The position numbers were made by a program, and so were the translations under genes. A model generated the notes under the pieces. It ran no database searches. It was not told the origin of the DNA and worked only from the letters and a program-made list of their open reading frames with translations. From contig JAUPFP010000004.1 in the NCBI GenBank assembly GCA_036925085.1, forward strand, positions 3,486,001 through 3,550,000: a stretch of DNA of 64,000 bases. Direction: 5' to 3'. Source of the stretch: Brachycybe producta. Lineage: Eukaryota; Arthropoda; Diplopoda; Playtdesmida; Andrognathidae. Of the stretch, positions 3,501 through 64,000 are shown piece by piece. Every line of letters begins with the position of its first letter. Positions within the stretch are counted from its first letter, which is position 1.

Positions 3501-4242
3501 TATGGACAATTCATCTTGCCCATTTTATTGCTGCAAGGGGACTATTTTTTTCTTTGGTTTCAGGCAAAAAAAAGACTGTATGTATGTATGTATGTGAGTG
3601 CGGCACATGACAGACATTGTAATCGACATTGCTTGTTGCCATAGAAACCAATATCAAATCTTCTTCATTGTGTTTGGTATCTTTCCCTTTTTTATCCCTC
3701 ACAATGTGTATATATACTAGGCCTCTATGAGTAGTGTTATAGCCATTATTTGGTGTATATTCAAGATATAACTGATGGAAGATATCATTTCTCGCCGATT
3801 TTCAAGCACAGATATAACCTTATTATGATTGCAAAAAAAGGGGATATTTTTTTTTGTTCTTTCTTCTTCTCTATCTATAATTTGTAGACATTTCATTTTT
3901 ATTTATTTATTTATTTTTCGAATGATAATATCTAACTTCCGTTGACTCAGAAATACAGTATATACAGTATACTGTATATGCCCTATATACATTTTTAGGT
4001 TTTTAATGTAACCAAAAAAAATGAATTCAATTTTGTTATAAAGTCTATAGCCTTTGGCAAAAATATCAATTGTGGTACATTTTTTTTTATTTATTTACAA
4101 ATGTTTCATTGGTTGTTGGGTAAACTGTTTGAGGGGTTGGTAAATTCACCAAATATGGATTTGGCATATACACACTGATCACATAGACACACACAACATA
4201 CATAGGGGCCTACAGATGATAAATCACAAGTGTACATGTTGT
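538..4242. other. Non-coding AT-rich DNA
   Basis: I see no supportable gene. Open frames are short (128 codons at most) and phenylalanine/leucine-rich because of poly-T tracts. The notable structures are a strong hairpin at 1608-1677, small inverted TA/TGTA repeats at 2685-2740 and 3955-3985, and many T and A runs. Confidence 0.6.
1608..1677. repeat. Near-perfect inverted repeat (hairpin)
   Basis: The arms meet at TTCCTTTGGAC / GTCCAAAGGAA around a 5-base GTTGT loop. The stem runs on through poly-T/poly-A and ends in CTTGAG / CTTAAG. Over about 31 paired positions there is one 3-base indel and one mismatch. It could be a small fold-back element, or a transcribed hairpin if the region is transcribed; the sequence does not decide. 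Confidence 0.6.
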
Positions 4243-4500
4243 GACACACACACACAAACAGATAGCTCAGATAAAACATATACGAAAACAGATAATACTT
4301 ACTGTTAAAATATACATTAAACAGGTAACAAACACCGTGAAAACTTAGAAGAAACACACACACAAACAGATAATGCAGATAAAAGACACGCAAAAACTGA
4401 TAAGAATACTGTTAAAATGTAGATTAAATAGGTAACACATAGCGAAAACTTAAAAGACATACACACAAACAGATAAGACACATGAAAACAGATAATAATC
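4243..4500. repeat. Minisatellite, about 107-bp unit, about 2.4 copies
   Basis: Units begin near 4244, 4353 and 4460 with a CACACAAACAGATA block. They continue through ACTGTTAAAAT, GGTAACA and GAAAACTTA. Related sequence reappears at about 4770-4835, after the hairpin element at 4523-4648, so the array seems to have been interrupted by insertion. Confidence 0.55.
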
Positions 4501-4522
4501 GAGTGAGAGAAGAATTACTCAC

Positions 4523-4648
4523 GCTGAAAAAAACCACCAGATAATAGAAATAGAAATAAAAAAATTCTGTGTTCCTTTGCACTCAAAGATATAGGGTGCT
4601 TCTGGTAAATGCAGAACAAAATGATATTCAGTGAGTTTTTTTTTCAGC
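4523..4648. mobile_element. Small hairpin MITE, copy A
   Basis: This 126-bp element starts GCTGAAAA and ends TTTTCAGC. Its interior (ACCACCA..., AAATTCTGT, TTGCACTCAAAGAT, GCTTCTGGTA, ATTCAGTG) matches the element at 9226-9350. It has no coding capacity and sits inside the GATA/CACA minisatellite. The superfamily and target duplication are unclear. Confidence 0.55.
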
Positions 4649-5339
4649 ATGTGTGATTCTTCTTAGTTTTTTCAATTGTATGGATTCACGTTATGCGGAA
4701 ACCTTCTTAACGAATGAGAATCTACCCGCATAAGTCAAGGACTTACTGGACTGTTCAAATATGGACAAAGCTGGTAACACACACGCATAACTTAAAAGAC
4801 ACACAGATAAAAGACACAAACAAACAGATAACACACGTCCCTATGCTTTACATGTATCTCACCTACGATATCGGTACTGAAAATTATTTTCGTTTTTCAT
4901 CTTTTTTTTTATTTATTTATTAATATATCTGAATCTCCAAAATTTTTGTAATTTATCTACGGACAGTGTAATTTAAGTTTGAGAATATTTATTCACTTTG
5001 AAAATATTGCCTCAGTTTAACAAACGCAGTCTTCAAAGATTTTTGTTTAACTTGAAAATTTTGTTTTGTTTTTTTACCTTTGTAAAAATCTATTTTATGT
5101 TTGTTATTTAGACATGGTTATAGACATAATTTCATATTTAATTCCCATATGATTAAATTCTAATATGAAAGTTTATTGATTTAACATGATAAATTTGTAG
5201 TTGATAGTTTGCAATTTGCATTCGCTCGTTTTTCAATGCTTACAAAGATAGAAAAGGTCAAACATCTGTTAGTATAAAAACATGCTTTAGTAACTGTATT
5301 AGTGTCATTTTTAGGCCAACAGTAACCTTAAAGCGCGCA
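4649..5339. other. Non-coding AT-rich DNA
   Basis: I see no gene. The beginning, around 4770-4835, carries residual minisatellite sequence related to 4243-4500. Confidence 0.5.
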
Positions 5340-5591: not shown

Positions 5592-7275
5592 TCCGAAGTG
5601 TGCGTGGCTGTGTGTGTGTGTGTGTGTGTGTCGTGATGCTAACATGTTATCCTAAGTTGTCAGCCCACATACAAATACACACACTCAATGTTGTTTTCAT
5701 TGTACAATATAAAGAAACACATACCTACTTTTAAATTTCTTTCAACACAAACATTCACACTTATATACTGTTTTTTTTCTTCTTTTTCTTCTTCTTCTTC
5801 TTCTATTGAAATACAGCAAACATTCTTTGTATAGGCCTATATGGTATAGTCCTATATGTATATATATAACTGTTTGTGAAAACATTAGGGATGAATCAAG
5901 ATAATATGAACCATGCTGATGTATCCCTGGGTGCTCGTTGTCATCGCATTGGCTCACTTCTTTCAACGGTGAGAGTGAGTGATCTCCAACCGCGTTTTCA
6001 GAAAGAGGAAAAAAAAACATTTCGGTTGTTTATACAATAGAATATATGTGCTTAACTTACAACAAACACAAACATGTTTAGGCCTACGTTTAGTTTTTCT
6101 TTTTTAATACGGAATATGGAAAACTGTACAATAATTACGTGAACATTTTTTATTCATTTGTAAATGCATGCATGGATTTCATTAAAAATTGATCACAGCT
6201 GTCAGGATGATGCTTTTCTGTTGGGGATGTGTTGGTATAACGTTTGTAGATGTATAGAGGAACATTTCAAAAAGGTGTTGCCTTTTTTTTTCTTCTTTTT
6301 TGGATTTTTGTTTTATATTAAGACTTGTTACACGACATTACTTATCGCGATAGAAGTGTCGATATATATCCTCCTACGCAGGCTCCACATTCGTTTATTT
6401 TTTAATTGTCAGTAAGGAATAGTGACGTCAAACTGAATGCACAGCCAACGCCGTGTATCTCAATGCATTTTGATGTGGCGTTATTTAACTTAGACGTAAG
6501 TTGGTAACTAGAGCTTTGTAAGCCTCTATAAAAGTGGGGCCACGGAGGAAGTTTTTTAAAAAAAAAAACGACACCAAATTTTTTTAAAACTTTTAAGCTT
6601 AGAGAATTATTGTAATAAAATCATTGTTTAAGTATAAATCTTGTTCAAGCAAAGACACTTTAATCTTGTCGGATAACAATTAAGCTAGAAATAATCTTTA
6701 TCTACATGTTTTAATGTAGGAAGCATTAGAGTGGCCACACATGTGATTACAGCTTGACACGTTGGTGTCTGAGATAGGAATATGACTGGTGATTGTGATT
6801 AAACAGAGGGACGCAACAACACTTTTACTACACACAGACAAACATAATATACTGAAAGGGAGAACATATAACAAACACCTATTGAAAAAGACCAGACACA
6901 CACACAAACTGTGATAACTGCATCACACAAAAATACACAACTTTTATATTTGACTGACACAATCACCAATAAAAGTTGTCTGTTTGAGTCAGCGTTACTT
7001 ATCACACTTTTGTTATCTCTTTTTATAATTGTGTGTATTTTGCGTATATTTGTGCTGTTTTTTTTTTCTCTTCTCTTCTTCTTTTAAAAAAAGAACAAAC
7101 TCTTGTTCTAAACAATGTCTACTATACTTTAGTAGCTAAGAGGTTGAAGGTGGTAGAACTAGATCTAATTAAAATTTCATTCCATTGTGACTAATTCAAA
7201 TACAAATGATAGTGATGGTTGAATGCTTAGAATCCAAGTCTTGAAATGCACTTTACATTTGTCAGAAGTAACAAC

Positions 7276-7358
<83 letters not shown>

Positions 7359-9225
7359 AACTTTGATTTTTGTTGCTTCTAATGAACAAGGCAATAAAAG
7401 TTGCTGTTTTGTCTAATGGCAGCAGCACCGCCACCACCACCATCAATACCACTAGCTTGTACATTGTACAATGTATGTGTGGCCTATACATATAACCATA
7501 TGTTTTTGAGGCTTGATTGGGCCTTCTATGGACATTGCAGCACTAACTAGAACCCTAGTGCAATCATGTTTAGATGTTATATGAAACCCTATCTTGAAGC
7601 TTATTGGACAAAGGAATCTTCATTTCATCGTCGTCATCTAAAGAGCAAATGATCTCTCTAAAGGATTTAGCTGGGATTTGTAACACACCTAAGCCAAGAT
7701 GAAAGCTTTGAGTGGTCGTCTTTTCTTATGCTGTTTTCTGCTTCTACTTCTACTAGTATAGGCTTACTTAATGTCATTTCTCAATGCATGCCTTCACTGA
7801 AAGAAATTGGTTGGTGATACTAAAAAAAAGCGAAATGAACGATTAAGAGCAAAAGATGGGACAACTTGCCATTTGTTCTGCAAAATGCATGGGGATGATA
7901 TGGGAAGAAGCATTTATCGACAACATTCTTCCATTTTTTTCTTTTTCTGAATTGCATTATATATCCTAGGTATAGATGGGGAAAAAACCTTTATGGTGTC
8001 TGCCTGTAGTGTCATATGTGTTAGTGTGTGTGTTTGTGTGATATAGGTATCTTATGTTACCATTCATTCCATCTCAATGCTCAATTCACAACAGTTGTTT
8101 TTTCTTCTTCTTTTCATATAAAATATTATAACATTTGATGTTTGTATCTTTGGTGAAAAAATATATTCAGAAGGATTTCAGCCTTGTTTTATTTTTTTTT
8201 GTTATTTTCTTGTTTCTTTGCTTCTATGTTTAATCAAATACATGGACTTGCATTACAGAATCTTAAACCGTTATTCCATTAATATAAAAGAATATATGAT
8301 GGATATATATTGCAGAAAAATATATAAAAAAATAGAATAGTAAAGGGGGGGAGGGAGAAAGTAAGAGGAAAGAGCAAAAAAAAAAATAGGGATTGGAATA
8401 AAAAAGGCACCACCATCACCGCCACCAATTCATGAGTTTTTTTTTTCATATAAAATTCCACATGTCTGTAGGTGACACAGCTATATAATATCGACCATTG
8501 TGTGTGTATGTGTGTGGACAAGAATAATCAAATTTTGTCAGAATAGAATTGGAGGCGTGAGTAGCATTCAAAAATAAGGAAAAAAAAAAAGATATGCATC
8601 ACAAAAGTAAAATTAGTTCATGCGTTAAATCATGAAATTCCATATGAGAGGGATGGAGAAGAGTAGAAAAAATAAAGAGATGAACATTTTAAACATAAAA
8701 ATGGTAAAGGTACAGGACGTGCTACCAGTCAAAGTAAAAAATCAGTTATTCTATACAAATACTAGACAATGCTTAAAATCACCAATTTCAAAAGTAAATC
8801 TACATGTTTGATAGAGATTTTATTCTATGTGCACTGGGTGCAGTGACCTAAATCAAAAAGTCAATCTGGATAATTGCTTTTTTTTTTTTAGTGTTGACCC
8901 TGATGCACATTGTCAAGCAATGCAACAGCAATGTAAGATTGCTTTCTAGTTTCTACTGAATTAAGTGCAAAGTGTAGTAACTAAAATATCAACTATTGGG
9001 TGTACATGAGCAATGTAGTGCGATAATACATTGTTGCTACATTACTTCATGGTGTATGGCACTATTCATAAGAATCTTATGAGTATATGGGCAATCTGCA
9101 CATTGCACTGAACTTTGTTAAACGAATTTCGTGTTAAAAGAATGAATTTGTATGCTATTCTAAGAGGCCGGACCAAAATGTATTTGGTATTATCCAATTT
9201 CTCATGTTCGGGTTGGATCACATAT
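5592..9225. other. Non-coding AT-rich DNA
   Basis: I see no supportable gene. It contains (GT)n at about 5608-5630, a TTC-rich tract near 5770-5805 and a long (TA)n microsatellite at 7279-7354. The open frames are low-complexity. Confidence 0.6.
7279..7354. repeat. (TA)n microsatellite
   Basis: An uninterrupted TA dinucleotide tract of about 76 bp. It gives a spurious isoleucine/tyrosine reading frame. Confidence 0.9.
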
Positions 9226-9350
9226 GCTGAAAAACCACCATAAAGTAGAGATAAAAATAAATTCTGTCTATCCTTGCACGCAAAGATTTGTGGCGCTTCT
9301 GGTATGTTTTTGTTTTTATAAATTGGGATTCAGTGGAAATTTTTTTCAGC
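9226..9350. mobile_element. Small hairpin MITE, copy B
   Basis: This 125-bp element is flanked by GCTGAAAA / TTTTCAGC. It is homologous along its length to 4523-4648, with shared AACCACCA, AAATTCTGT, CTTGCACGCAAAGAT and GCTTCTGGTA blocks. It has no coding capacity. Confidence 0.55.
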
Positions 9351-51706: not shown

Positions 51707-52905
51707 ACTAGTACCGTGTGACCCAGAAGCTAACGTTTACAGGGCCCAACGACGGCCCAACGGCGTAAAACACAAAAAAAACGTTAAGAAGCCCAAATCG
51801 TCTCACTAGTCATGTCTCATAATTGGCTAAATACGACGACTTCCGCCTGAAGTATATGGTGGTTGAGAAGAGTAGTATAGGAAAAGTCATTTCTGCACCA
51901 CTTTTCTCCATAGACTACTATGGTGACCTCATTTCGAGCTCCACATTCCAATCTCCCATAGACTCTCATTGAGTCATTTCTGCACCACCCGTTTTAAAGT
52001 CATTTTAATGCTTCATCAGAGAGAAAAAACTTTGACCCAGTTTTCATAGAGGGAAAAAATAATAGTCAACAACATGTTTTTTTGTATTGCCTGTTGTTTT
52101 TAACTCATAATTTATTTCCTGCTTAAATTCTATAAAGAGAAATAACACAAAGCAAGGTTACTTGACCACTTATTTTTATACAATTTATGATTATAAAAAA
52201 CCTGTTTGTTTACACATTTTCTGTACTGTAGTTTTTATGTATTGAAGGTAAGTCATTTAATTCCATCAGCTGAAATATAATATTGTATTCTTGTCTACAG
52301 CACTTTTTCCTCACTTGTTTTTTCATGCCTCATAGAATAACAATGAGTCATTTCTATGGCATGGCAATCAATGTCAACCAGTTTTCATGCAGTGTTTCAC
52401 AAAATACTTAATTATGTATTCTTTTCATGAAAGGGAAAAAAGGATAGTCAAAAACACTTTTTGTATCTCCTGTTTTTAACTAATTTATTTCCTGCTTTTA
52501 AATAAATTCTATAGAGAAATAACAAAACAAGGTTACTTGGCCACTTATTTTTTATACATTTCATGGCCATAAAAACTTGTTTATTTGTTTCAGTTTATAT
52601 TATCATTGTAAGTTTTGTATGAAAATAAAATGAGGAAACCTGATATGAATTTAAAATGAATGTTTAATGGCTTCTGTTTTTAGAGATGATGATTATCAAT
52701 GTGTCTCAAACTTTTCATTATTATTTAAAGAAAAACCAGCTTCTTGTTTTGAAGTTTTAATCATATGTAGTCCAAGGTTGTTTTTTTTATTTTGTGATTA
52801 ATTCGTGATTTTATATTGTATTTTGTTTTTTAAATTAATTTTAAAAACAGCCTTGGTATGTTATCTATTATTGAATTTTTTGGGGTTATGTGAAAAATGG
52901 TTTAC
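51707..52905. other. Non-coding flank of the replication module
   Basis: I see no gene. It includes repeated phrases such as GTCATTTCTGCACCAC (near 51887 and 51976) and a diverged direct duplication at 52045-52625. The left boundary of the virus-like module probably falls here, but no terminal inverted repeat could be paired with the right side, which is lost in the gap. Confidence 0.45.
52045..52625. repeat. Two diverged direct copies of about 200 bp
   Basis: Copies at about 52045-52250 and 52425-52625 share TTTTCAT...GGGAAAAAA, TAGTCAA, TTTATTTCCTGCTT, GAGAAATAACA, CAAGGTTACTTG and CCACTTATTTTT in the same order. They lie directly upstream of the first module gene. Confidence 0.55.
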
Positions 52906-52913
52906 TATAAAAG
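52906..52913 (+). promoter_or_regulatory. TATA box of the acidic-protein gene
   Basis: TATAAAAG lies 54 bp upstream of the ATG at 52960. Transcription would be expected to start about 30 bp downstream, in TTTACAACACATTC, giving a very short leader. Inferred from motif and spacing. Confidence 0.55.
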
Positions 52914-52959
52914 AAACCAATTTTCACTTATTTACAACACATTCATCTTTTCTAAAAAT

Positions 52960-53470
52960 ATGGAAGCACCACAAATGAAGACAAAGGAAGAAAAGAAAAA
53001 AGGTAAATATATATTTTTAAAAATAAACAATCATTTTTGTAATGTTTTTTTCTTATTTTTTTTTCTTTCTAGGTGAAGCAAAGATATTCATCAACGATGG
53101 CCACCAGCTGCCTACAATCAGTCAGCTAGAGGAAGCTGCTCAAGAAATGAGGCAACGGCTTGAGGACATCGAGGATTTCATTGAAGAAAGCGAGGAATCA
53201 CATAAAATGGATGTTGATGATGGAGAAAAAGACATCAACGATATCAAAGACCCGGATGATGCGGATAAAGCCACCATTGATGGGATGAATCCTTTAGAAC
53301 TTGATGGTGAGGATTGGGAGTTGGAGACGTATTCGAAGGAGGAAATTGCAGCAATGGAGGAGGCTGCAAAAATGGCCGAAGTGGCCAAAAAAATAGCTCA
53401 GCAAGAGTGGAGGGAGAAAATTCGTCAACAGGATAAGCTGTGGATAGCTTTTCACAATGCAAAAATTTAA
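52960..53470 (+). CDS. Acidic coiled-coil-like protein of unknown function (two exons)
   Basis: I do not recognise this protein. I read it as two exons, 52960-53002 and 53073-53470, separated by a 70-bp intron with donor AAG|GTAAAT and a pyrimidine-rich acceptor TTTCTTTCTAG. The join is in phase 1 and gives 146 residues. The alternative unspliced frame would open at an ATG inside the intron's poly-T and add an implausible MFFSYFFFFL leader. The first exon is lysine-rich. The middle is strongly acidic (EDIEDFIEESEE, DVDDGEKD), and the last 45 residues are an Ala/Glu/Lys helix likely to form a coiled coil, ending in a Trp-containing tail. It is the first gene of the plus-strand module, with its own TATA box and a polyadenylation signal at 53564. 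A role as a replication accessory or core protein is only a guess. Confidence 0.65.
53003..53072 (+). other. Phase-1 intron, 70 bp
   Basis: GTAAAT donor, A/T-rich body with a long pyrimidine tract, and CTAG acceptor. The reading frame is kept across the join. Confidence 0.65.
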
Positions 53471-53540
53471 TCGTTTTTTTTATTTTGTGTAATGTTTTTA
53501 ATATTTTTAGCTATTGTGTTTATTTTTTTATTTTTTTGTT

Positions 53541-54103
53541 TTGCTTTTAATTGGTGTTTTATGAATAAAATGTTTTAAAAGTTTTTTTGGTTTTGGTATT
53601 CTTTGTTATTTTTCTTTTAGTTCTTTTAAAGTTTTTAGACTTCAGGGTTTTAATTCTTTTTTTTTCATTTTTAGTTTTTTAAAGTTTTTAAGTTTTTTTT
53701 AGTTTTGTTAATAATTTTTTATTTTACTTTTAGCTATTTTAAAGTTTTTAGGTTTTATGTTTTTTAAATTGTTTTTTTTCATTTTTAGTTTTTTAAGTTT
53801 TTCAAGTTTTGTTTTTTAATTGGTTTTTATGAATAAAATGTTTAAAAGTTTTTTGGTTTTGGTATTCTTTGTTATTTTTCTTTTAGTTCTTTTAAAGTTT
53901 TTAGACTTCAGGTTTTTAATTCTTTTTTCATTTTTAGTTTTTTAGTTTTTCAAGTTTTGTTTTTTTAATTGGTTTTTATGAATAAAATGTTTAAAAGTTT
54001 TTTTTGGTTTTGGTATTCTTTGTTATTTTTCTTTTAGTTCTTTTAAAGTTTTTAGACTTCAGGTTTTTAATTCTTTTTTCATTTTTAGTTTTTAAAGTTT
54101 TTA

Positions 54104-54137
<34 letters not shown>

Positions 54138-54345
54138 TTTTGTTTTGTTTTGTTAATAATTTTTTATTTTACTTTTAGCTATTTTAAAGTTATTAGGTTT
54201 TATGTTTTTTAAATTGTTTTTTCATTTTTAGTTTTTTAGTTTTTCAAGTTTTGTTTTTTAATTGGTTTTTATGAATAAAATGTTTAAAAGTTTTTTAAGT
54301 TTTGTTTTTTTTAATTGGTTTTATGAATAAAATATTCAAAAGTTT
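53541..54345. repeat. T-rich downstream repeats with five AATAAA-bearing units
   Basis: The phrase AATTGG(T)TTTTATGAATAAAA recurs five times (about 53549, 53819, 53971, 54261, 54317). Linked phrases TTTTTAGACTTCAGG (three times) and TTACTTTTAGCTATTTTAAA (twice) show that the 3' region of the acidic-protein gene was tandemly duplicated with about 150- and 270-bp periods. The first AATAAA (53564-53569) is probably the working polyadenylation signal. A long T run with TTTTG units fills 54108-54152. Confidence 0.7.
53564..53569 (+). terminator. Polyadenylation signal AATAAA
   Basis: It lies 94 bp after the stop of the acidic-protein gene and is followed by T-rich sequence. Confidence 0.5.
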
Positions 54346-54620
54346 TTTTGTAGTTTTTTTTTCACTGTTTAGTTTTTTGGTTTTTAAAAGTTTTTTAAAT
54401 ACTTTATAAATAGTATGTGTTACAAGAGCTAACTAAAGCTATTCATAAGATTGGCTATTTTACATTTTTTTTTGTTTCCATATTGATGCATTCTATAGCC
54501 TTGTTCTGTTTTCTATATTTTGTATAACCTTGTTCTATTTTCTATATTTTGTATTGATGTCTTTCATAACCTTGAATTACTTCTTATTATTGGTGGTTTG
54601 TTTTTAATAGCTGAGTCTTC
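54346..54620. other. AT-rich spacer between the acidic-protein and PC4-like genes
   Basis: I see no gene. A short duplication, CCTTGTTCTRTTTTCTATAT, occurs near 54499 and 54531. Confidence 0.5.
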
Positions 54621-54665
54621 ATTGGTCAATCTTTTTCATCAGGATAGCTAGTTGAGTATAAAAAG
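54621..54665 (+). promoter_or_regulatory. Promoter of the PC4-like/polymerase transcript
   Basis: An inverted CCAAT box (ATTGG, 54621-54625) lies 31 bp before TATAAAAAG at 54657-54665. Transcription would start near 54690 and give a leader of about 320 nt. Inferred from motif order and spacing. Confidence 0.5.
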
Positions 54666-54762
54666 ATTAAAATTTTATCATAGAATTCACATATCATCTT
54701 TTATTCTGAAAGCTTCACAGCAAAGACTGTCTATTGACATTTGGTCATCTTGCTTTTTACAA

Positions 54763-54898
54763 AAATCAACACTTCAGAAATTTTTTTACTGTGACTGCTG
54801 TTAAAATCAACACTCCACAACATTTTTTTAACTGTGACTACTGTTAAAATCAACACTTCAGAAATTTATTTGCTGTGGCTACTGTTCAAATCAACACA
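54763..54898 (+). repeat. 42-bp tandem repeat in the 5' leader
   Basis: AAATCAACAC starts units at 54763, 54804, 54846 and 54888. Each is followed by CTTCAGAAATTT or a variant and by ACTGTGACTRCTGTT. They sit between the TATA box and the first ATG, so they are probably transcribed leader sequence. Confidence 0.65.
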
Positions 54899-55010
54899 AA
54901 TTCTTTCTTTTGTGCTGGTTGCTGTTATTTTTGCCATCTCTTCTATATTCTGTGTAAGACAGTGTTCGTCAAAACCTGATCATCTATAACATCAAAAACA
55001 ACTTAACACA

Positions 55011-55631
55011 ATGCAGGATAATCACGAGATCATTGGTGAGCATGGATTTTTTATCATAAAAGCCATATAGCTGATAATAGACATTTCACAAATCCTTTCT
55101 ACTTTTCTACTATTTTTATTTGATGGGGAATTTGCCTTTCTGATAGTTAAAACATACACATTTTCAAATTTCATAAAGTAGTCAATATCGCTTCTTAGAA
55201 AAAATTCTGAAAACATATTGATAGACTTGACGGTAGAATCTGCAGTAACTGGCCGAAAAACAAAAAGGAAAACCGCACCAAAATCTGAAGTTGCAAAACG
55301 TCCAGCGAAGGCAATCGGCGAGGCGGGGCCATCTTCAGCTGTAGCGGAAGACACGATCAAAGAATGGTTTGGACGTCACCTCAGTAAATCGGAGGAAAAG
55401 AACACTTTACCAGATTTCAAAGTTCATGAAACTATCCCCGTCGAGGACAACTGGAAACTACGTATTCTCGAAAGTAATGAGAATTGGTTCATCGACATCC
55501 GTAAATATAGCATAGAAAATAAATTTACTAAAGGGGCTTGTATTCCAGTTCATATTTACCCCCAGTTAATCACCAAACTTAATCAAGTTCCTACTGTTTT
55601 GGGTAAATTGGGATTTGATTTTGAAAAATGA
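55011..55631 (+). CDS. PC4/SUB1-like, probably single-stranded-DNA-binding protein (two exons)
   Basis: Read as exons 55011-55035 and 55225-55631 with a 189-bp intron (donor G|GTGAGC, acceptor TTGATAG), joined in phase 1, giving 143 residues. The second exon's frame has no suitable ATG of its own before the conserved part, which supports splicing. Residues 18-24 (GRKTKRK) and the following Lys/Arg-rich stretch look like a nuclear localisation signal. Residues about 79-136 resemble the C-terminal core of transcriptional coactivator PC4: NWFIDIRKY, then a short turn, KGACIPVHIYPQL and a final helix. PC4 cores bind ssDNA as dimers (family knowledge), so a role as replication ssDNA-binding protein or late transcription factor is inferred. 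Its stop overlaps the polymerase ATG (ATGA), implying coupled translation. A distant-homology search was not possible here. Confidence 0.65.
55036..55224 (+). other. Phase-1 intron, 189 bp
   Basis: GTGAGC donor after only 8 codons plus one base. The acceptor ATAG restores the frame (G|AC = Asp). The acceptor lacks a strong pyrimidine tract, so it is less certain than the first intron. Confidence 0.5.
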
Positions 55632-58600
55632 GCTGTTTCATATGTGGGGATCCAGATAGCTCCATGGAGCATTTTCTCAATGCCCATGTTATTGGACCTA
55701 TCAAAGAAAAATGTAATCTCTGCAATTCACAATTTAATACTAAAACGGAATGGTTGGTCCATTTAAATAACACTCACGAAATATTTTTACCAGATTCTTT
55801 TATCATACATAAAACGGGATTTGGGAGTGTATTAGTTACCTTAAAACACATGAATGGGAATAATATTCAGGATCCAAGGGACTATTTTCAACACGTCTAT
55901 AATGATGTTACGAATTTGTTAGAGGGATGGTCTAATAAAATGAGATTTAAATTTCAATTATGTTTACGCATTCATTTTATGAAGCCAAAAATCATTTATG
56001 AAAACAATGAGTCAATAATGACTTACGAAACCAATGATTCTTATTTTTGTAGTAATATGAAACTTATTATGCATCATTCAGAAATAAAACAGTACTTGCG
56101 AGAATGTGAAATGCAAATCTTAGGCGCAATAGAAGCTTTCATTAATAGAGGTTCGGGTTGGGTGATCGATTCCATCGAAGATGTAGAAATCAAAATTGGT
56201 AAATACAGACCGTATAAAGGGGGATGTTCGGGAAAACTTCCCGTTTCATTAAAAAATAAGAAATCTATTTTAAATATCGCATCTAAAGATGCCAAATGTT
56301 TTTTATGGTGTATATTAGCTCATTTACATCCGGTCACGAGAGACAACCATCCAAATAGATTGAGCCACTATAAGAAATTAGAAGGTTCTCTGGATACATC
56401 CATGCTTGAATATCCCGTTGGTTTAAGCCAAATTTCAAAATTCGAAATTGCGAATAATCTCAAAATTAACGTTTTCGGTTACGATAAATTTGTGGTTCCT
56501 CTTCAGTTAAGCAATTCCAACTCAAATAGAGAAATAAATCTTCTTCTTCATGACAGGCACTACTTTCTCATTCGAAATATTGCTCGATTAATGGGACGTG
56601 ATGGTTTAAACAAAAAATTTTTTTGCTTACGATGCTGCCAAGGGTTTAAAGTCGAAAGCGCTTTAGAAAGGCATCGTCCCATGTGTGAAGAGCATAAAAC
56701 GGCCAAAATTCGGTTACCCAGCAAAGAGGATTGTGTTTTAAAGTTTAACGAGTTTCATAAAGCCTTGCGGTGCCCTTACGTAGCTTATTTTGATTTCGAA
56801 AGTCTCATCCAAAAAGTCAGTGGCCCAACTCAAAATCCGAGTACCTCCTATACCAAAACCATCCAAAAACACGAAGCTTGCTCGTATTCTTACGTTATCG
56901 TTGATTATCACGGTAAGGTTGTAGCTCACGAATGTAAAAGGTCCCAAGATCCTGCGTATGAGCTTGTCATGACGTTAAGAGACAAAGCCAGTGCATTGCT
57001 GAAATCAGCCCCAATAGAGCCTATGATCATGACGAACGAAGATGAGGAAAATTTCCAGAAAACCACACACTGTTACGCTTGTCATACGGAGTTCAATGAG
57101 TTTATAACGGGCAAAGTAAGAGATCATGACCACCATCTTCCGGGAAACAATTACAGGGGTGCAGCGTGCTTCAGTTGTAATGCAACCTTGCGTGACCGCT
57201 CTTACTTGCCATGTTTCGCTCATTGTTTACGTTCGTATGATGAGCATTTTATCGTTAAAGCCCTATCTAGGATTAAAACGGAAAAGCCCATTAACATTAT
57301 TCCATTAAATATTGAGCGCTATACGAGTTTCATCGTCGATGATCTCGTGTTTCTAGATAGTTTTCAATTCTTGTCCGCTCCACTCGCAACCCTCGCTCAA
57401 AATCTTTCTAAAGAGAAATTTAATTGCGTTTCGTGGTTTTTCGAGGACCCTTCAAAAATTGATCTCATGACGCAAAAAGGACATTTTCCTTATGAATACT
57501 TGGACAGTCACTCAAAATTTGACGCAGTAGGCATTCCGGATAAAGCTTGTTTCAACAATACCCTGAATGAAGAAGTGATCTCTGATAAAGATTACGAGCA
57601 CGTGAAAAAGGTATGGGAGACGTTCGGTTGTGAAACATTAGGCGATTACCACGATATTTACTTAAGAAGCGATTGTCTCATTTTGGCGGATGTTTTCGAA
57701 AATTTCCGAACTATTTCTTTTAAAAGTTTTGGACTAGATCCCGCGCATTATTTCACTTTGCCCATGTATGCATGGTCCGCCGCTTTGAAATACACAGAAG
57801 TTGAGTTGGAATTACTTACGGATTATGATATGCACTTATTTATCGAAAAAGGTATTCGCGGAGGTGTTTCTGTTGCCAGCCACAGATACGCAAAAGCGAA
57901 CAATCCCTATCTAAATGATTACGATCCATCTAAGCCTAAATCTTATTTAGCCTATTGGGACTACAATTCCTTGTATGCTACGGCGATGTGCGAGCCCATG
58001 CCCATGAAAGATTTTTGTTGGTTAGATGAAAATGAGATCAAAACTTTTGACATCCATTCCATAAATCCAGATGACAAAGAGGGATACATATTAGAAGTGG
58101 ATCTCGATTATCCCCTTGATTTACATTTTGATCATAGTGACTACCCTCTTTGTCCAGAAAGGCTCGATATTCACCTCGATATGCTATCTCCTTATGCTAA
58201 AGACCTTCTAAAAAAAGTAAAAGGAAAAGAACCCAAAAACTACAAGACGAAAAAACTCGCACCAAATCTTTATCATAAAAAACATTACGTGATTCATGTT
58301 AGAAATTTACAATGCTACTTAAACCTGGGGATGAAATTAATCAAAATTCATCGTGTTCTTTCTTTTACCCAAGGTAAGTGGTTAAAGCCCTATATAGAAT
58401 TTAACATTGCCATGCGTAAACTAGCAAAAGATGATTTCGAAAAAGACTTTTTCAAATTAATGAACAATGCCGTTTTCGGGAAAACGATGGAAAATCAAAG
58501 AAAAAAAATGAATGCCGAACTCGTTAATGAAAAAGAACGGTGTCTAAAATTACTCAGTCGCGCAAATTTAGACTCATTTCACATTATCGATAAGAATCTC

Positions 58601-59227
58601 ACTGTTTTTAAAATGAAAAAATGGTCCATTTATTTTAACAAACCATTGTATACGGGTTTTACTGTGCTAGAAATATCGAAGTTGTTCATGTATGAATTTT
58701 ATTATTATGTTCTGAAATCAAATTATCCCGGAAATAGATTGAAATTGTTGTATACCGATACGGATAGTTTCATTATGCATATTCAAACGAAAGATTTGTA
58801 CCATGACATGCAGCGTTACCAATACCATTTGGATACGAGTGACTATCCAAAAAGTCACTTTCTGCACTCTCTTAAAAACAAAAAAGTTATGGGAAAATTT
58901 AAAGATGAAATGAATGGTGAACCTATTTCGGAATTTGTGGCCCTAAAATCTAAAATGTATTCTATACTGTTAAATAGCCATAAGTATAAATGTAAAGCTA
59001 AAGGTATTAAGAAACAGATCGTTAAATCTCACTTCAATCATGATATGTACATTGAATCTTTGCATCAGTCTATTCCGAATAGGGTGATTCAACGGCAAAT
59101 CATGTCTAAAATGCACGATATTTACACTCTAGAAGTGAACAAAATCAGTCTTACCGCATTCGATGATAAACGTTATATTGAGAATGACGGAATTACTACC
59201 CTCGCTTATGGCTATTTTTCAATTTAA
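55628..59227 (+). CDS. Family B (protein-primed type) DNA polymerase with zinc fingers and HNH insertion
   Basis: This 1199-aa protein is intact with no stops or frameshifts. Two C2H2-type fingers open it (C3/C6/H15/H20 and C29/C32/H45/H50). Residues about 200-320 form the conserved N-terminal region with DAKCFLW (C224) and RHYFLI (H311), possibly OTU-like. A further finger is C333/C336/H349/C353. The 3'-5' exonuclease motifs are FDFES (D389, E391), LRSYDEHF (D538) and YLRSD (Y678, D682). Between ExoI and ExoII sits an endonuclease VII-like HNH module: C482/C485, DHDHH at 499-503, C514/C517. Polymerase motif A is DYNSLY (D778), B is KLMNNAVFG (K943-G951), C is YTDTDS (D1044, D1046), and KSKMY follows at 1107-1111. 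The long A-B spacing fits the TPR insertions of protein-primed enzymes. All catalytic acidic residues are kept, so it is probably active in DNA synthesis and proofreading. It belongs to the polymerases of Polinton/adintovirus-like elements and related metazoan linear elements. The terminal protein is not identified. Confidence 0.93.
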   Translation: MSCFICGDPDSSMEHFLNAHVIGPIKEKCNLCNSQFNTKTEWLVHLNNTHEIFLPDSFIIHKTGFGSVLVTLKHMNGNNIQDPRDYFQHVYNDVTNLLEGWSNKMRFKFQLCLRIHFMKPKIIYENNESIMTYETNDSYFCSNMKLIMHHSEIKQYLRECEMQILGAIEAFINRGSGWVIDSIEDVEIKIGKYRPYKGGCSGKLPVSLKNKKSILNIASKDAKCFLWCILAHLHPVTRDNHPNRLSHYKKLEGSLDTSMLEYPVGLSQISKFEIANNLKINVFGYDKFVVPLQLSNSNSNREINLLLHDRHYFLIRNIARLMGRDGLNKKFFCLRCCQGFKVESALERHRPMCEEHKTAKIRLPSKEDCVLKFNEFHKALRCPYVAYFDFESLIQKVSGPTQNPSTSYTKTIQKHEACSYSYVIVDYHGKVVAHECKRSQDPAYELVMTLRDKASALLKSAPIEPMIMTNEDEENFQKTTHCYACHTEFNEFITGKVRDHDHHLPGNNYRGAACFSCNATLRDRSYLPCFAHCLRSYDEHFIVKALSRIKTEKPINIIPLNIERYTSFIVDDLVFLDSFQFLSAPLATLAQNLSKEKFNCVSWFFEDPSKIDLMTQKGHFPYEYLDSHSKFDAVGIPDKACFNNTLNEEVISDKDYEHVKKVWETFGCETLGDYHDIYLRSDCLILADVFENFRTISFKSFGLDPAHYFTLPMYAWSAALKYTEVELELLTDYDMHLFIEKGIRGGVSVASHRYAKANNPYLNDYDPSKPKSYLAYWDYNSLYATAMCEPMPMKDFCWLDENEIKTFDIHSINPDDKEGYILEVDLDYPLDLHFDHSDYPLCPERLDIHLDMLSPYAKDLLKKVKGKEPKNYKTKKLAPNLYHKKHYVIHVRNLQCYLNLGMKLIKIHRVLSFTQGKWLKPYIEFNIAMRKLAKDDFEKDFFKLMNNAVFGKTMENQRKKMNAELVNEKERCLKLLSRANLDSFHIIDKNLTVFKMKKWSIYFNKPLYTGFTVLEISKLFMYEFYYYVLKSNYPGNRLKLLYTDTDSFIMHIQTKDLYHDMQRYQYHLDTSDYPKSHFLHSLKNKKVMGKFKDEMNGEPISEFVALKSKMYSILLNSHKYKCKAKGIKKQIVKSHFNHDMYIESLHQSIPNRVIQRQIMSKMHDIYTLEVNKISLTAFDDKRYIENDGITTLAYGYFSI

Positions 59228-59275
59228 ACAAAATTTAGATAAAATCATTTGTTGTTCATTATAGAACCTACCATA

Positions 59276-59695
59276 ATGGTTAAGAGATTAAGCGATGCAT
59301 GTGTCATCCCGAAGAAAATGAATATGGGTGATGCCGGATATGATCTGTATTCTGCGGTGAACTGCACTATTAAACCTGGAGATAGAATGCTCTGTGCGAC
59401 AGACTTATCCATGGCTATACCGTATAATTCCTATGGAAGAATCGCACCAAGATCGGGCCCCGCGCTTCATTTTGGAATCGATGTTTTGGCCGGTGTCATT
59501 GATTCCAGCTACAGGGGAGCTATTAATGTTCTGTTAATAAATTTCGGAACCTATGATTTTTCTATTAAAAAAGGGGATAGAATTGCGCAAATCATTTTTG
59601 AAAAAATATACCCCGATGTGGAATTTACAGAGTGCGATGTTGAACTCCCTCCAAGCACCCGTGGTGAGCTTGGGTTTGGCTCTACGGGAAAATAA
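59276..59695 (+). CDS. dut: dUTPase (deoxyuridine triphosphatase), trimeric type
   Basis: It hydrolyses dUTP to dUMP and pyrophosphate, keeping uracil out of new DNA and supplying dUMP for thymidylate. All five family motifs are present in the 139-aa product: I AGYDLYSA (20-27), II GRIAPRSG (54-61), III GVIDSSYRG (73-81, with Asp76 and Tyr79), IV GDRIAQ (100-105), and V RGELGFGSTG near the end (Phe134). Length is normal for a single-domain trimeric enzyme. I chose the ATG at 59276; the frame stays open upstream only to a TTG and contains a possible splice acceptor (CATTATAG, 59257-59264). The gene starts 48 bp after the polymerase stop with no room for its own promoter. A dUTPase beside a viral-type polymerase fits independent replication in cells with low dNTP/dUTP control. 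Confidence 0.95.
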   Translation: MVKRLSDACVIPKKMNMGDAGYDLYSAVNCTIKPGDRMLCATDLSMAIPYNSYGRIAPRSGPALHFGIDVLAGVIDSSYRGAINVLLINFGTYDFSIKKGDRIAQIIFEKIYPDVEFTECDVELPPSTRGELGFGSTGK

Positions 59696-59783
59696 GTATT
59701 TACTCGATGTAGTCCTATAAATGTTTATTCACGATTGTATACATCCCATAATGTTACATATACCCATTTTAATATATTTACTT

Positions 59784-59834
59784 TATATAAATAATATAAT
59801 AATACATGTATTGAAAAGGTAAAGGGTAAATAAA
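59784..59834 (+). promoter_or_regulatory. TATA-like box and polyadenylation signal between dUTPase and next gene
   Basis: TATATAAA (59784-59791) could serve the frame beginning near 59923. AATAAA (59829-59834) lies 134 bp after the dUTPase stop and is the likely 3' end signal of the polymerase/dUTPase transcript. Both are short AT-rich motifs in AT-rich DNA and so only suggestive. Confidence 0.3.
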
Positions 59835-59922
59835 AATGTAATTAAAAAGCATACAGTGGTAAATATTTTTTTAGATTATAATTAATAAATGCGTGAACAA
59901 TTTTATCATTTCGCAAATAATT

Positions 59923-59951
59923 ATGTCGATGAAACGTAGAAACGATACTTT
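59923..59951 (+). CDS. Start of a further gene, cut by the assembly gap
   Basis: An ATG opens the frame MSMKRRNDT and then enters the run of Ns. The basic start is what a DNA-binding or virion core-type protein might have, but nine residues cannot identify it. The open frame seen beyond the gap is simple repeat and should not be joined to it. An alternative ATG at 59889 gives a 16-codon frame ending in TAG before the gap, and could instead be another short first exon. Confidence 0.25.
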
Positions 59952-60051
59952 NNNNNNNNNNNNNNNNNNNNNNNNNNNNNNNNNNNNNNNNNNNNNNNNN
60001 NNNNNNNNNNNNNNNNNNNNNNNNNNNNNNNNNNNNNNNNNNNNNNNNNNN
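59952..60051. other. Assembly gap, 100 N
   Basis: Exactly 100 Ns, the conventional filler for a gap of unknown size. Sequence on the two sides is unrelated, so the true distance and even the adjacency are uncertain. Confidence 0.98.
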
Positions 60052-61388
60052 TCTCCCCGCTTCTTTTACCCCTCTTTTCCCCCCTCTTCTTTTCCCCCTC
60101 TTTTTTCCCCCTCTTTTTCCCCCTCTTCTTTTTCCCCTCTTCTATTCCCCCTCTTTTTCCCATCTTTTCCCCCTTTTTTCCCCCTCTTTTTCCCCCTCTT
60201 CTTTTCCCCCTCTTCTATTCCCCCTCTTTTCCCCCTCTTTTTCCCCCTCTTTTCCCCTCTTCTTTTCCCCCTCTTTTCCCCCTCTTTTCCCCCTCTTCCT
60301 TTCCCCCTCTTTTTTCCCCCTCTTTCCCCCTCTTCCTTTCCCCTCTTCTTTTCCCCCTCTTTTCTCCCTATTCTTTTCCCCATCTTTTCCCTCTTTTCCC
60401 CTCTCCTTTCCCCCTCTTCTTTTCTCCCTCTTTTATCCCCCCTCATCTTTCCCCCTCTTCTTTTCCCTCTCATCTTTCCCCCTCTTCTTTTCTCCCCTCT
60501 TCTTTCTCCCCTCTTCTTTTGCCCCTCTTTTTCCCCTCTTCTTTCCCCCTCATCTTTTCCCCCTCTCCTTTCTTCCTCTTCTTTTCCCCCTCTTCTTTTC
60601 CCCCTCTTCTTTTCTCCCTCTTTTTTCCCCCTCTTTTCCCCCTCTTTTCCTCCTCCTTTTCTTTCTTTTCCCCCTGTTTCCCCCCTCTTTTCCTCTTTCT
60701 TTTCCTCCCTCTTTTCCTCCTCTTTTCCCTCTCTTTTCCCCCTCTTTTCCACCTCTTTTCTCCCTCTTTTCCCCCTCTTTTCTCCCTCTTTTTCCCTCTT
60801 TTTCCTCCCTCTTTTCCCCTCTTTTCCTCCCTCTTTTCCTCCCTCTTTTCCTCCCTCTTTTCCCTCTCTTTTCCCACTCTTTTCCCCCTCTTTTTTCCCT
60901 CTTTTTCCCCCTCTTTTCCCACCCTCTTTTCTCACCTTTTCCCACCCTCTTTTCCCCTTTCTTTTCCCCCACTCTTTTCCCCCTCTTTCCCCCTCTTTTC
61001 CCCTTTTCCCCCCTCTTTCTCCCTTTCTTTCCCCCCTCTTTTTCCCCTTTTTCCCCCTTTTTTCCCCCTTTTTTTCCCCCCTCTTTTCCCCCTCTTTCCC
61101 CTCTTTTCCCACCCTCTTTTACCCTCTCTTTTCCCCCAGTTTTCCCCCTCTCTTTTCCCCCCTCTTTCTTCCTTTTTTTGTCACCTTTTTCCCACCTTTT
61201 TTTCCCACCCTTTTTCTCCCTCTTACCCCCCTTTTCCCCCCTCTTTTCCCCTTCTTTCCCCCTCTTTCCTTCTTTTTCCCTCTCTTTTCCCCCTCTTTCC
61301 CCCTCCTTTTCCCCCTCTTTCCCCCCCCTCTTTTCCCCCTTTTTTTCCCCCTTTTTTCCCCCTCTTTTCTCCCTCTTTTCCCCCTCTT
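60052..61388. repeat. Pyrimidine-rich CCCCCTCTTTT satellite array
   Basis: Over 1.3 kb of almost pure C/T with an irregular unit of about 11-14 bp (TCCCCCTCTTTT and variants). Pro/Ser/Phe-rich frames forward and Gly/Lys/Glu-rich frames in reverse are artefacts. The tract can in principle form triplex DNA. Confidence 0.9.
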
Positions 61389-62846
61389 ATGCTTTTTATG
61401 CTTTTTATGCTTTTTATGCTTTTTATGCTTTTTATGCTTTTTATGCTTTTTATGCTTTTTATGCTTTTTATGCTTTTTATGCTTTTTATGCTTTTTATGC
61501 TTTTTATGCTTTTTATGCTTTTTATGCTTTTTATGCTTTTTATGCTTTTTATGCTTTTTATGCTTTTTATGCTTTTTTATGCTTTTTATGCTTTTTATGC
61601 TTTTTATGCTTTTTATGCTTTTTATGCTTTTTATGCTTTTTATGCTTTTTATGCTTTTTATGCTTTTTATGCTTTTTATGCTTTTTATGCTTTTTATGCT
61701 TTTTATGCTTTTTATGCTTTTTATGCTTTTTATGCTTTTTATGCTTTTTATGCTTTTTATGCTTTTTATGCTTTTTATGCTTTTTATGCTTTTTATGCTT
61801 TTTATGCTTTTTATGCTTTTTATGCTTTTTATGCTTTTTATGCTTTTTATGCTTTTATGCTTTTTATGCTTTTTATGCTTTTTATGCTTTTATGCTTTTT
61901 ATGCTTTTTATGCTTTTTATGCTTTTTATGCTTTTTATGCTTTTTATGCTTTTTATGCTTTTTATGCTTTTATGCTTTTTATGCTTTTTATGCTTTTTAT
62001 GCTTTTTATGCTTTTTATGCTTTTTATGCTTTTTATGCTTTTTATGCTTTTTATGCTTTTTATGCTTTTTATGCTTTTTATGCTTTTATGCTTTTTATGC
62101 TTTTTATGCTTTTTATGCTTTTTATGCTTTTTATGCTTTTTATGCTTTTTTTTTATGCTTTTTTATGCTTTTTTATGCTTTTTTATGCTTTTTTATGCTT
62201 TTTTATGCTTTTTTATGCTTTTTTATGCTTTTTTATGCTTTTTTATGCTTTTTTATGCTTTTTTATGCTTTTTTATGCTTTTTTATGCTTTTTTTATGCT
62301 TTTTTATGCTTTTTTATGCTTTTTTATGCTTTTTTTTGCTTTTTTATGCTTTTTTATGCTTTTTTTATGCTTTTTTATGCTTTTTTTATGCTTTTTTTTT
62401 TTTGCTTTTTTTTATGCTTTTTTATGCTTTTTTATGCTTTTTTATGCTTTTTTATGCTTTTTTTATGCTTTTTACGCTTTTTACACTTTTTATGCTTTTT
62501 ATGCTTTTTATGCTTTTTATGCTTTTTATGCTTTTTATGCTTTTTGTTTTTTTATGCTTTTTTTTTATTCTTTTTTATGCTTTTTTTATGCTTTTTTATG
62601 TTTTTTTATGCTTTTTTTTATGCTTTTTTATGTTTTTTTATGCTTTTTTTTATGCTTTTTTTATGCTTTTTATGCTTTTTATGCTTTTCTATGCTTTTTT
62701 ATGCTTTTTTTATGCATTTTATGCATTTTATGCATTTATGCATTTTATGCTTTTTATGCATTTTATGTTTTTTATGCTTTTTATGCTTTTTATGATTTTT
62801 TATGCTTTTTATGCTTTTTATTATTTTTTATGCTTTTTATGCATTT
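61389..62846. repeat. ATGCTTTTT 9-bp satellite array
   Basis: Very regular ATGCTTTTT units, roughly 150 copies. About 62150-62460 shifts to 10-11-bp variants with extra Ts, and the distal part decays (ATGCATTTT, ACGCTTTTT). Because the unit is 9 bp, all forward frames stay open for hundreds of codons; these are not genes. Confidence 0.95.
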
Positions 62847-63019
62847 TGGGGTTTTTTTTATGTTTTTTGTTTTTGGGGGGTTTTTTTTGGTTTTTTTTTT
62901 TTTCTTTTTTTTTTCTTTTTTTTGGTTTTTTTTTTTTTAGGTTGTTTTAATTTTTTTTGGGAAAATTTTTTTGGATGACATCGAACTTTTTTGGTTTTTA
63001 AGTGACCTTGAATTTTTTT
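62847..63019. repeat. G/T-rich low-complexity junction
   Basis: Long T and G runs (GGGGTTTTTTTT and similar) followed by short unique sequence containing two GAATTTTTTTGGATGA-like words. It separates the 9-bp array from the 31-bp array. Confidence 0.7.
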
Positions 63020-64000
63020 GGATGAGAAATAGAAAAAAGCAAGAAAAAGTAGAGTAGAAATGGAGAAAAGTAAGAAAAAGTAGAGTAGAAATAGAAAAAA
63101 GCACGAAAAAATATAGTAGAAATAGAGAAAAGCAAGAAAAAGTAGAGTAAAAATAGAGAAAAGCAAGAAAGAGTAGAGTAGAAATAGAGAAAAGCAAGAA
63201 AGAGTAGAGTAGAAATAGAGAAAAGCAAGAAAATGTAGAGTAGAAATAGAGAAAAGTAAGAAAAAGTAGAGTAAAAATAGAGAAAAGCAAGAAAGAGTAG
63301 AGTAGAAATAGAGAAAAGCAAGAAAAAGTAGTGTAGAAATAGAAAAAAGCAAGAAAAAGTAGAGTAGAAATAGAAAAAAGCACGAAAAATATAGTAGAAA
63401 TAGAGAGAAAGCAAGAAAAAGTAGAGTAAAAATAGAGAAAAGCAAGAAAAAGAAGTGTACAAATAGAGAAAAGCAAGAAAAAGTAGTGTAGAAATAGAAA
63501 AAAGCAAGAAAAAGTAGAGTAGAAATAGAAAAAAGCAAGAAAAAGTAGAGTAGAAATAGAAAAAAGCAAGAAAAAGTAGAGTAGAAATAGAAAAAAGCAA
63601 GAAAAAGTAGAGTAGAAATAGAGAAAAGAAAGAAAGAGTAGAGTAGAAATAGAGAAAAAGCAAGAAAAAGTAGAGTAAAAATAGAGAAAAGCAAGAAAGA
63701 GTAGAGTAGAAATAGAGAAAAGCAAGAAAAAGTAGAGTAGAAATAGAGAAAAGCAAGAAAGAGTAGAGTAGAAATAGAGAAAAGCAGAAAAAGTAGAGTA
63801 GAAATAGAGAAAAGCAAGAAAAAGTAGAGTAGAAATAGAGAAAAGCAAGAAAAAGTAAGTAGAAATAGAGAAAAGCAAGAAAGAGTAGAGTAGAAATAGA
63901 AAAAATGCAAGAAAGAGTAGAGTAGAAATAGAAAAAAGCAAGAAAAAGTAGAGTTGAAATAGACAAAAGCAAGAAAAAGTAAGACTAGAAATAGAAGAAA
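63020..64000. repeat. 31-bp purine-rich minisatellite
   Basis: The unit is close to AGTAGAGTAGAAATAGAGAA followed by AAGCAAGAAAA, about 31 copies with single-base variants. It runs off the window end. The reverse-strand open frames of more than 300 codons in all three phases arise because 31 is not a multiple of 3 and the reverse complement lacks stops. Confidence 0.92.

What the first reader, a model, noticed from the sequence alone, without database searches (positions are those of the whole stretch)
52906..59951. Intact replication module of a probable integrated virus or self-replicating transposon
Directly seen: four uninterrupted genes on one strand, including a 1199-aa family B polymerase with all exonuclease and polymerase motifs, a dUTPase with all five motifs and a PC4-like protein. 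Family knowledge: such polymerases belong to Polinton/adintovirus-like or related animal elements. The combination with dUTPase and a PC4-like protein, plus short first exons, is not the standard Polinton set as I know it. Intact frames suggest recent insertion, activity or selection.
Basis: partly seen in the sequence, partly recalled or inferred. Interest (0 to 1): 0.87.

Follow-up and report, generated by a model that had tools for sequence, protein, structure and literature searches.

The report
Recently active Maverick virus-like element
The window holds the left half of a virus-like mobile element (a Maverick/Polinton of the adintovirus kind) that has recently copied itself to many places in what looks like an arthropod genome and carries a gene resembling the host's own cell-death regulators.

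Summary
The observation largely holds. Window 51871-59951 is the left 8.1 kb of a ~17.5-kb Polinton/Maverick element (adintovirus-type), cut by a 100-N gap. PolB (1199 aa) and dUTPase are intact; the 'PC4-like' name failed the tests run. Sister copies show what the gap hides: adenain-like protease, hexon and penton candidates, rve-chromodomain integrase, A32-like ATPase, a RING protein and a Bcl-2-like protein. The ends are inverted repeats (118 bp in three copies compared); 19 of 20 full-length copies with perfect ends have an exact 6-bp target duplication. Four PolB copies, the window's among them, differ by 0-1 of 3597 nt: very recent spread. PolB and the hexon candidate are under purifying selection between families, as far as dS could be measured. 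The twentieth copy (C5), the window and contig C133 have swapped target duplications, an assembly crossover or a real exchange; the satellites after the gap are not shown to adjoin the element. The Bcl-2-like protein best resembles one of three host Bcl-2 proteins compared, and its gene reads through a probable host intron site, suggesting capture. Best reading: an endogenous, recently mobile adintovirus-like virus; a known kind with unusual accessory genes.

The parts
51865..51870 (.). left target-site duplication GAGAAG (its partner lies at the right end of the C5 copy)
51871..51988 (.). left terminal inverted repeat, 118 bp identical to the right ends of the three sister copies compared, starts AGTAGT
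52960..53470 (+). gene 1: predicted exons 52960-53002 and 53073-53470, 146 aa; function unknown; found only in some copies of the family
   Evidence: no Pfam family over cut-off for the ORF 53042-53467
53475..54426 (.). T-rich tandem repeats (one unit about 151 bp) between gene 1 and the next gene
55011..55631 (+). the gene called PC4-like: predicted exons 55011-55035 and 55225-55631, 143 aa; conserved in element families, identity as PC4 not confirmed
55628..59227 (+). family B DNA polymerase, 1199 aa, with a weak endonuclease-VII-like stretch (residues 478-521)
59276..59695 (+). dUTPase (first ATG of the ORF at 59276)
59842..59951 (-). 3' end of the adenain-like protease gene; the rest is beyond the gap
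59952..60051 (.). 100-N gap inside the element; contig C133 begins with exactly the next base of the sister copy
60052..64000 (.). tandem satellites after the gap (units of about 11, 9 and 31 bp); not shown to be part of or next to the element

Best explanation
The window holds the left part of a Polinton/Maverick element, an endogenous adintovirus-like double-stranded DNA virus. It most likely works as follows. PolB copies the linear element (protein priming is inferred from the family; dUTPase would keep uracil out). The rve-chromodomain integrase inserts the copies and makes 6-bp target duplications (the insertion signature is shown, the enzyme's role is inferred). The putative capsid proteins, protease and ATPase would pack some copies into particles (inferred). 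The Bcl-2-like protein, perhaps with the RING protein, would delay death of the producing cell (inferred).
For: Ends and insertion: 118-bp TIRs in three copies compared; 19 of 20 full-length pairs with perfect ends have an exact 6-bp TSD. Gene set in sister copies: rve E 2.1e-15, Chromo 6.3e-8, Pox_A32 8.2e-6; protease against the S273R cysteine protease E 8.4e-4; integrase against solved integrases E 5.1e-7, PFV integrase 5.6e-6. Recency: 0-1 differences in 3597 nt of PolB among four copies; the 12 best-scoring of 42 rows were compared. 41 of 108 rows of the hexon candidate span the whole query without a stop. Purifying selection: PolB dN/dS 0.117 in the one of two pairs that could be measured; hexon candidate 0.066-0.088 in 5 of 10 pairs. 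Bcl-2: 7 of 9 members match PF00452 at E 1 or better, best 9.5e-11.
Against: The hexon candidate has no convincing Pfam match (best E 0.1, unrelated) and no PHROG or PDB match, and no fold could be predicted, so the capsid role rests on position, size and conservation. The adenain match is below Pfam's cut-off. The best A32 stretch covers only 26 residues, and another P-loop family (RNA_helicase) is also over its cut-off. PF03175 is found only with a short slice of PolB. No relative was found in IMG/VR. No outside PolB tree could be made. In one search four of 10 hexon pairs were saturated and one recent pair had dN/dS 0.78. No expression or particle data.
Confidence: 0.9

Rival explanations
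1. A plain self-replicating transposon that moves only inside the genome and makes no particles; the capsid-like genes are passengers.
For: Dozens of copies within one genome; no outside relative found in IMG/VR.
Against: The hexon candidate is well conserved, dN/dS 0.066-0.088 in the 5 of 10 pairs between families that could be measured; genes that do nothing should decay. Recent copies alone could hitch-hike.
Confidence: 0.2
2. An endogenous virus kept and used by the host (domesticated), for example as defence or delivery.
For: Many intact copies.
Against: Copies sit at different sites with exact target duplications, and broken copies are common: the pattern of a parasite, not of a fixed host locus.
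Confidence: 0.04
3. Artefact: contamination or chance neighbours brought together by the assembler.
For: The window contig is broken inside the element, and target duplications are swapped between C4, C5 and C133.
Against: The same parts recur in many copies with their own flanks and target duplications.
Confidence: 0.02

Closest known systems
Vertebrate Mavericks (PMC8097293; abstract in a listing and passages seen)
   Same: 6-bp TSD, terminal repeats with an (AGT)2 end motif reported, PolB, integrase, protease, ATPase and capsid genes in two modules, purifying selection, some intact copies
   Different: its intact elements are described with eight intronless conserved ORFs; here gene 1 and the PC4-like gene have predicted short first exons, and dUTPase, RING and Bcl-2-like genes are added
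Adintoviruses (PMC11071296; section 16 and passages seen; the defining paper Starrett 2021 was not held)
   Same: PolB, rve integrase with C-terminal chromodomain, adenain; anti-apoptotic homologs and/or candidate oncogenes are said to occur in most mammal-associated species
   Different: Alpha/Beta placement and hexon relationship could not be tested; the dUTPase, Bcl-2 and RING set was not found in the papers searched
Drosophila-associated adintoviruses 1-3 (PMC8363768; passages seen)
   Same: arthropod setting; 13.3-14.6 kb; adintovirus 1 is described with PolB, integrase, capsid, protease and FtsK proteins
   Different: 15.0-17.5 kb here; the words Bcl and dUTPase do not occur in that paper's main text
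Polintons as 'Polintoviruses' (PMC4028283; passages seen)
   Same: MCP, penton, ATPase and adenovirus-like protease named as conserved Polinton genes
   Different: the word dUTPase does not occur in its main text

Membership tests
Polinton/Maverick | family B DNA polymerase | tested here: met
   PF03175 53.3 bits, E 2.8e-14, with a 350-aa slice; missed with longer queries
Polinton/Maverick | retrovirus-like integrase | tested here: met
   in a sister copy: rve E 2.1e-15; solved integrases E 5.1e-7
[quoted passage not shown]
   118-bp TIR in three copies; 19 of 20 pairs with 6-bp TSD
Polinton/Maverick | packaging ATPase | tested here: met
   Pox_A32 25.9 bits against cut-off 22.8, but the best stretch covers 26 residues only
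Polinton/Maverick | adenovirus-like protease | tested here: inconclusive
   Peptidase_C5 16.3 bits, below cut-off 21.3; S273R cysteine protease E 8.4e-4
Polinton/Maverick | double jelly-roll major capsid protein | tested here: inconclusive
   441-aa candidate next to the protease; no profile hit of use; fold prediction switched off
Polinton/Maverick | penton (single jelly-roll) | tested here: inconclusive
   455-aa candidate by position; Pfam gives only weak, below-cut-off, mostly coiled-coil-type matches, PHROGs none
Adintovirus | integrase with C-terminal chromodomain | tested here: met
   PF00385 E 6.3e-8, residues 316-355 of 358
Adintovirus | PolB with N-terminal OTU-like domain | tested here: inconclusive
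   residues 1-528 match only weak zinc-finger and endonuclease VII models, all below cut-off; resemblance is recalled
Adintovirus | hexon recognisable by BLASTP to reference adintoviruses | not testable with these tools
   no reference sequences on hand
PC4 (PF02229) | match to the PC4 domain | tested here: not met
   0 of 6 members hit PF02229 at E 1 or better; PDB profile search up to E 5 gives no PC4 among 11 hits; hhalign with PC4 proteins of the same genome: probability 1.1, E 0.051, one IDIR-like stretch
Bcl-2 (PF00452) | match to the Bcl-2 domain | tested here: met
   7 of 9 members match at E 1 or better, best 9.5e-11; second element family over cut-off at 44 bits; the window-family protein alone 19.8 bits, below the cut-off of 31.4
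dUTPase (PF00692) | match to the family | tested here: met
   117.8 bits against cut-off 22

The most novel reading that the evidence does not exclude
A still-mobile arthropod Maverick virus that long ago took a Bcl-2 gene of one particular host-type paralog as an intron-free copy, and uses it, perhaps with an IAP-type RING protein, to keep producing or germline cells alive while it copies and packs itself; the cargo at its ends turns over faster than the core.
Probability: 0.35. Interest if true: 0.7.

Novelty: new member of a known kind. Interest (0 to 1): 0.5.

Why it matters
The abstract of PMC8097293 says that Maverick particles had not been observed. A genome with many near-identical intact copies, plus related families, is a good place to look for particles, insertion polymorphism and host silencing. 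The Bcl-2-like gene gives a traceable case of likely gene flow from animal host to a Maverick-type element, with a paralog of the likely donor type in the same genome.

Tried and rejected
PC4 identity: Pfam on all 6 members, profile against PDB, hhalign against true PC4-domain proteins of the same genome; none supports it. The weak alignment covers an IDIR-like stretch, so a very distant relation is not excluded.

Relatives in IMG/VR: PolB alone, hexon alignment, PolB alignment, integrase; none found in 4 scans. The patterns were few and reach close relatives mostly.

Hexon by sequence: no convincing match in Pfam, none in PHROGs or PDB.

Haplotype duplication as the cause of many copies: rejected for the 19 copies whose target duplications match at both ends, because these duplications are all different.

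Host name: mitochondrial COX1 has ten TGA codons in frame, and AGA stands at four places where serine seems fitting (my judgement). Arthropod, perhaps a chelicerate, is a judgement from recalled sequences, not a database result.

Literature: searches. Polinton with PC4: 0 papers. Adintovirus with Bcl2: 0 papers. Polinton with Bcl-2: 3 papers, one of them also seen in passages. Polinton, Maverick and dUTPase: 6 papers, a listing, the same one seen in passages. PMC4061559 was seen in passages. The defining adintovirus paper was not held.

Full report
WHAT IS THERE. The window is G000:C4:3486001-3550000 of a 295.3-Mb genome in 442 contigs. Its four + strand genes are real and open. A 350-aa slice of PolB (residues 529-878) matches DNA_pol_B_2 with 53.3 bits, E 2.8e-14. 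The full-length query and a 670-aa slice show no such match, and the genome search with this family did not list the window copy; I put this down to HMMER's filters, because a short slice of a related copy scores 64.3 bits while the longer piece does not. PDB searches with PolB found no polymerase. dUTPase scores 117.8 bits. The predicted short first exons have GT/AG borders. No Pfam family was found for the PC4-like protein, and gene 1 had none over its cut-off.

ELEMENT BORDERS. Six copies fetched begin to match the window at 51871 and a seventh at 51869. At 51871 lies AGTAGTATAGG, and the right ends of copies carry the same sequence inverted; left and right ends are identical for 118 bp in the three copies compared. 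A pattern of the first 29 bases with up to 3 mismatches occurs 89 times forward and 87 times reverse in the genome, against 0 and 0 for the reversed control. Of the 100 places listed, 49 are perfect; these make 20 inverted pairs 15.0-17.5 kb apart and 9 singles, the window's left end among them.

TARGET DUPLICATIONS. Flanks of all 20 pairs and of 7 of the 9 singles were read. 19 of 20 pairs have exact 6-bp duplications, all different. The exception is C5, with TACGCC on the left and GAGAAG on the right. The window's left flank is GAGAAG. The lone right end on contig C133 is flanked by TACGCC. C133 starts with exactly the base that follows window 59951 in the C1 copy. The window piece (8081 bp) plus the C133 piece (9386 bp) is 17,467 bp, against 17,470 bp for the C5 copy. 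So one original contig was probably cut at the window's gap, and two near-identical copies have swapped flanks, either in assembly or in reality. The satellites at 60052-64000 are therefore only scaffold neighbours as far as shown.

GENE CONTENT BEYOND THE GAP, read in pieces of sister copies (L045 coordinates). On the - strand: protease 233-700, 441-aa hexon candidate 705-2027, 158-aa basic protein 2033-2506, 455-aa penton candidate with coiled-coil-like middle 2506-3870, integrase with chromodomain 3870-4943, 204-aa and 119-aa proteins, A32-like ATPase 5886-6719, 122-aa and 186-aa proteins, Bcl-2-like protein 8846-9319. On the + strand: a RING protein 8383-8655 (E 5e-12). 'Hexon' and 'penton' are assigned by position and recalled resemblance; profile searches did not confirm them. 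A coiled-coil-type ('Cah-like') insert in an adintovirus penton is mentioned in PMC11071296 section 16.

RECENT ACTIVITY. PolB: 42 rows, 23 full length without a stop; behind each of the 23 lies a dUTPase hit. The 12 best-scoring rows were compared over 3597 nt: the window copy and three others differ by 0-1 nt, and the largest difference among the twelve is 28. Hexon candidate: 108 rows, 41 spanning the whole query without a stop. The dUTPase (150 rows), PC4-like (150) and Bcl-2-like (151) searches reached the limit of scored candidates and include many broken copies; all these counts are lower bounds. A related family (for example C57, C49, C4:7.79 Mb) shows 71-72% identity in the hexon candidate, 62% in dUTPase, 38% in the PC4-like protein and 33% in the Bcl-2-like protein.

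SELECTION (Nei-Gojobori, pairwise). PolB, 2 pairs: window against L004 gave dN/dS 0.117, the other was saturated. Hexon candidate, 10 pairs: 5 gave 0.066-0.088, 4 were saturated, 1 recent pair gave 0.78. Bcl-2-like, 15 pairs: 12 gave 0.20-0.54, 3 saturated. PC4-like, 6 pairs: 1 gave 0.157, 5 saturated. High dS makes these values rough, but those between families point to constraint, tighter in the core genes than in the Bcl-2-like gene.

THE BCL-2-LIKE GENE. Alone, the protein of this family is below Pfam's cut-off (19.8 against 31.4 bits). Of nine homologs aligned, 7 match PF00452 at E 1 or better, best 9.5e-11; the profile hits solved Bcl-2 proteins, best Bcl-2-related ovarian killer at E 1.2e-4. 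The second family is over the cut-off at 44 bits. BH1-like and BH2-like stretches and a hydrophobic C-terminal tail are visible in the alignment (motif names recalled). The genome has stronger Bcl-2 matches that I take for host genes (C6, C22, C10, C8). Three of these four (C6, C22, C10) were compared by phmmer with four element proteins: with the element proteins as queries, all four match the C10 gene best among the three (29.8-41.4 bits), and the others at 15.2 bits or less or not at all (open frames around the match only, a set of seven sequences). In the three host genes the open frame runs past the GGW codon into GT-starting sequence that looks like a splice donor, weakly so in two of them, while the two element genes looked at read on. 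This fits capture of a processed or intron-free copy; the introns were not proved and no tree was made.

PC4. The genome holds true PC4-domain matches: a strong one at C8 and nine weaker ones, all over the cut-off. Of the three weaker ones fetched, two (C5, C11) have nearby a relative of this element's 186-aa protein (56% over 95 aa and 39% over 108 aa), so they probably belong to another virus-like element. The window's protein did not match these PC4 proteins with any confidence. I call it 'PC4-like in name only' for now.

HOW IT WORKS. Shown: inverted ends, 6-bp target duplications, many recent copies, intact genes, constraint. Inferred from the family: protein-primed replication by PolB, integrase-driven insertion, packaging by ATPase, protease and capsid proteins. 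Inferred from homology: Bcl-2-like and RING proteins acting on cell death.

KNOWN OR NEW. [quoted passage not shown] This is therefore a new member of a known kind. The dUTPase, Bcl-2 and RING set was not found in the papers searched (mostly listings, with passages of some), but the defining adintovirus paper could not be read.

Noticed in passing
window 59952-60051; G000 C5:5670939-5688408; C133:1-9386: Swapped target duplications (GAGAAG, TACGCC) between three places show either a mis-join through near-identical 17.5-kb copies or a real exchange; the window contig is cut inside the element.
   Followed up: partly
L115, L116 (C5:545758, C11:3347194), also L117 (C13:4277316): True PC4-domain proteins; in L115 and L116 a homolog of the element's 186-aa protein lies nearby, so probably a different virus-like element in the same genome.
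   Followed up: partly
C57, C49, C17, C10:2.74 Mb, C4:7.79 Mb, C1:6.9 Mb and others: A second, related element family with many near-identical hits (71-72% in the hexon candidate, 33% in the Bcl-2-like protein).
   Followed up: partly
L104 (C3:11523800-11524680); C35:2056665-2057489: Two Bcl-2-like reading frames in tandem.
   Followed up: no
L109 (C8:6201900-6204300): The 16.4-kb form has no ORF of 80 aa or more where the 17.4-kb form has gene 1, yet both forms share near-identical PolB ends, hexon candidate and Bcl-2-like gene: this suggests module exchange.
   Followed up: partly
C1:12697416-12698753; C17:4027703-4029047: Probable nuclear copies of mitochondrial COX1; the likely mitochondrial contig is C442.
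   Followed up: no
window 55628-57211, PolB residues 478-521: Weak endonuclease-VII-like stretch inside the polymerase (E 0.00024, below Pfam's cut-off), seen in 4 of 4 PolB members scanned.
   Followed up: no
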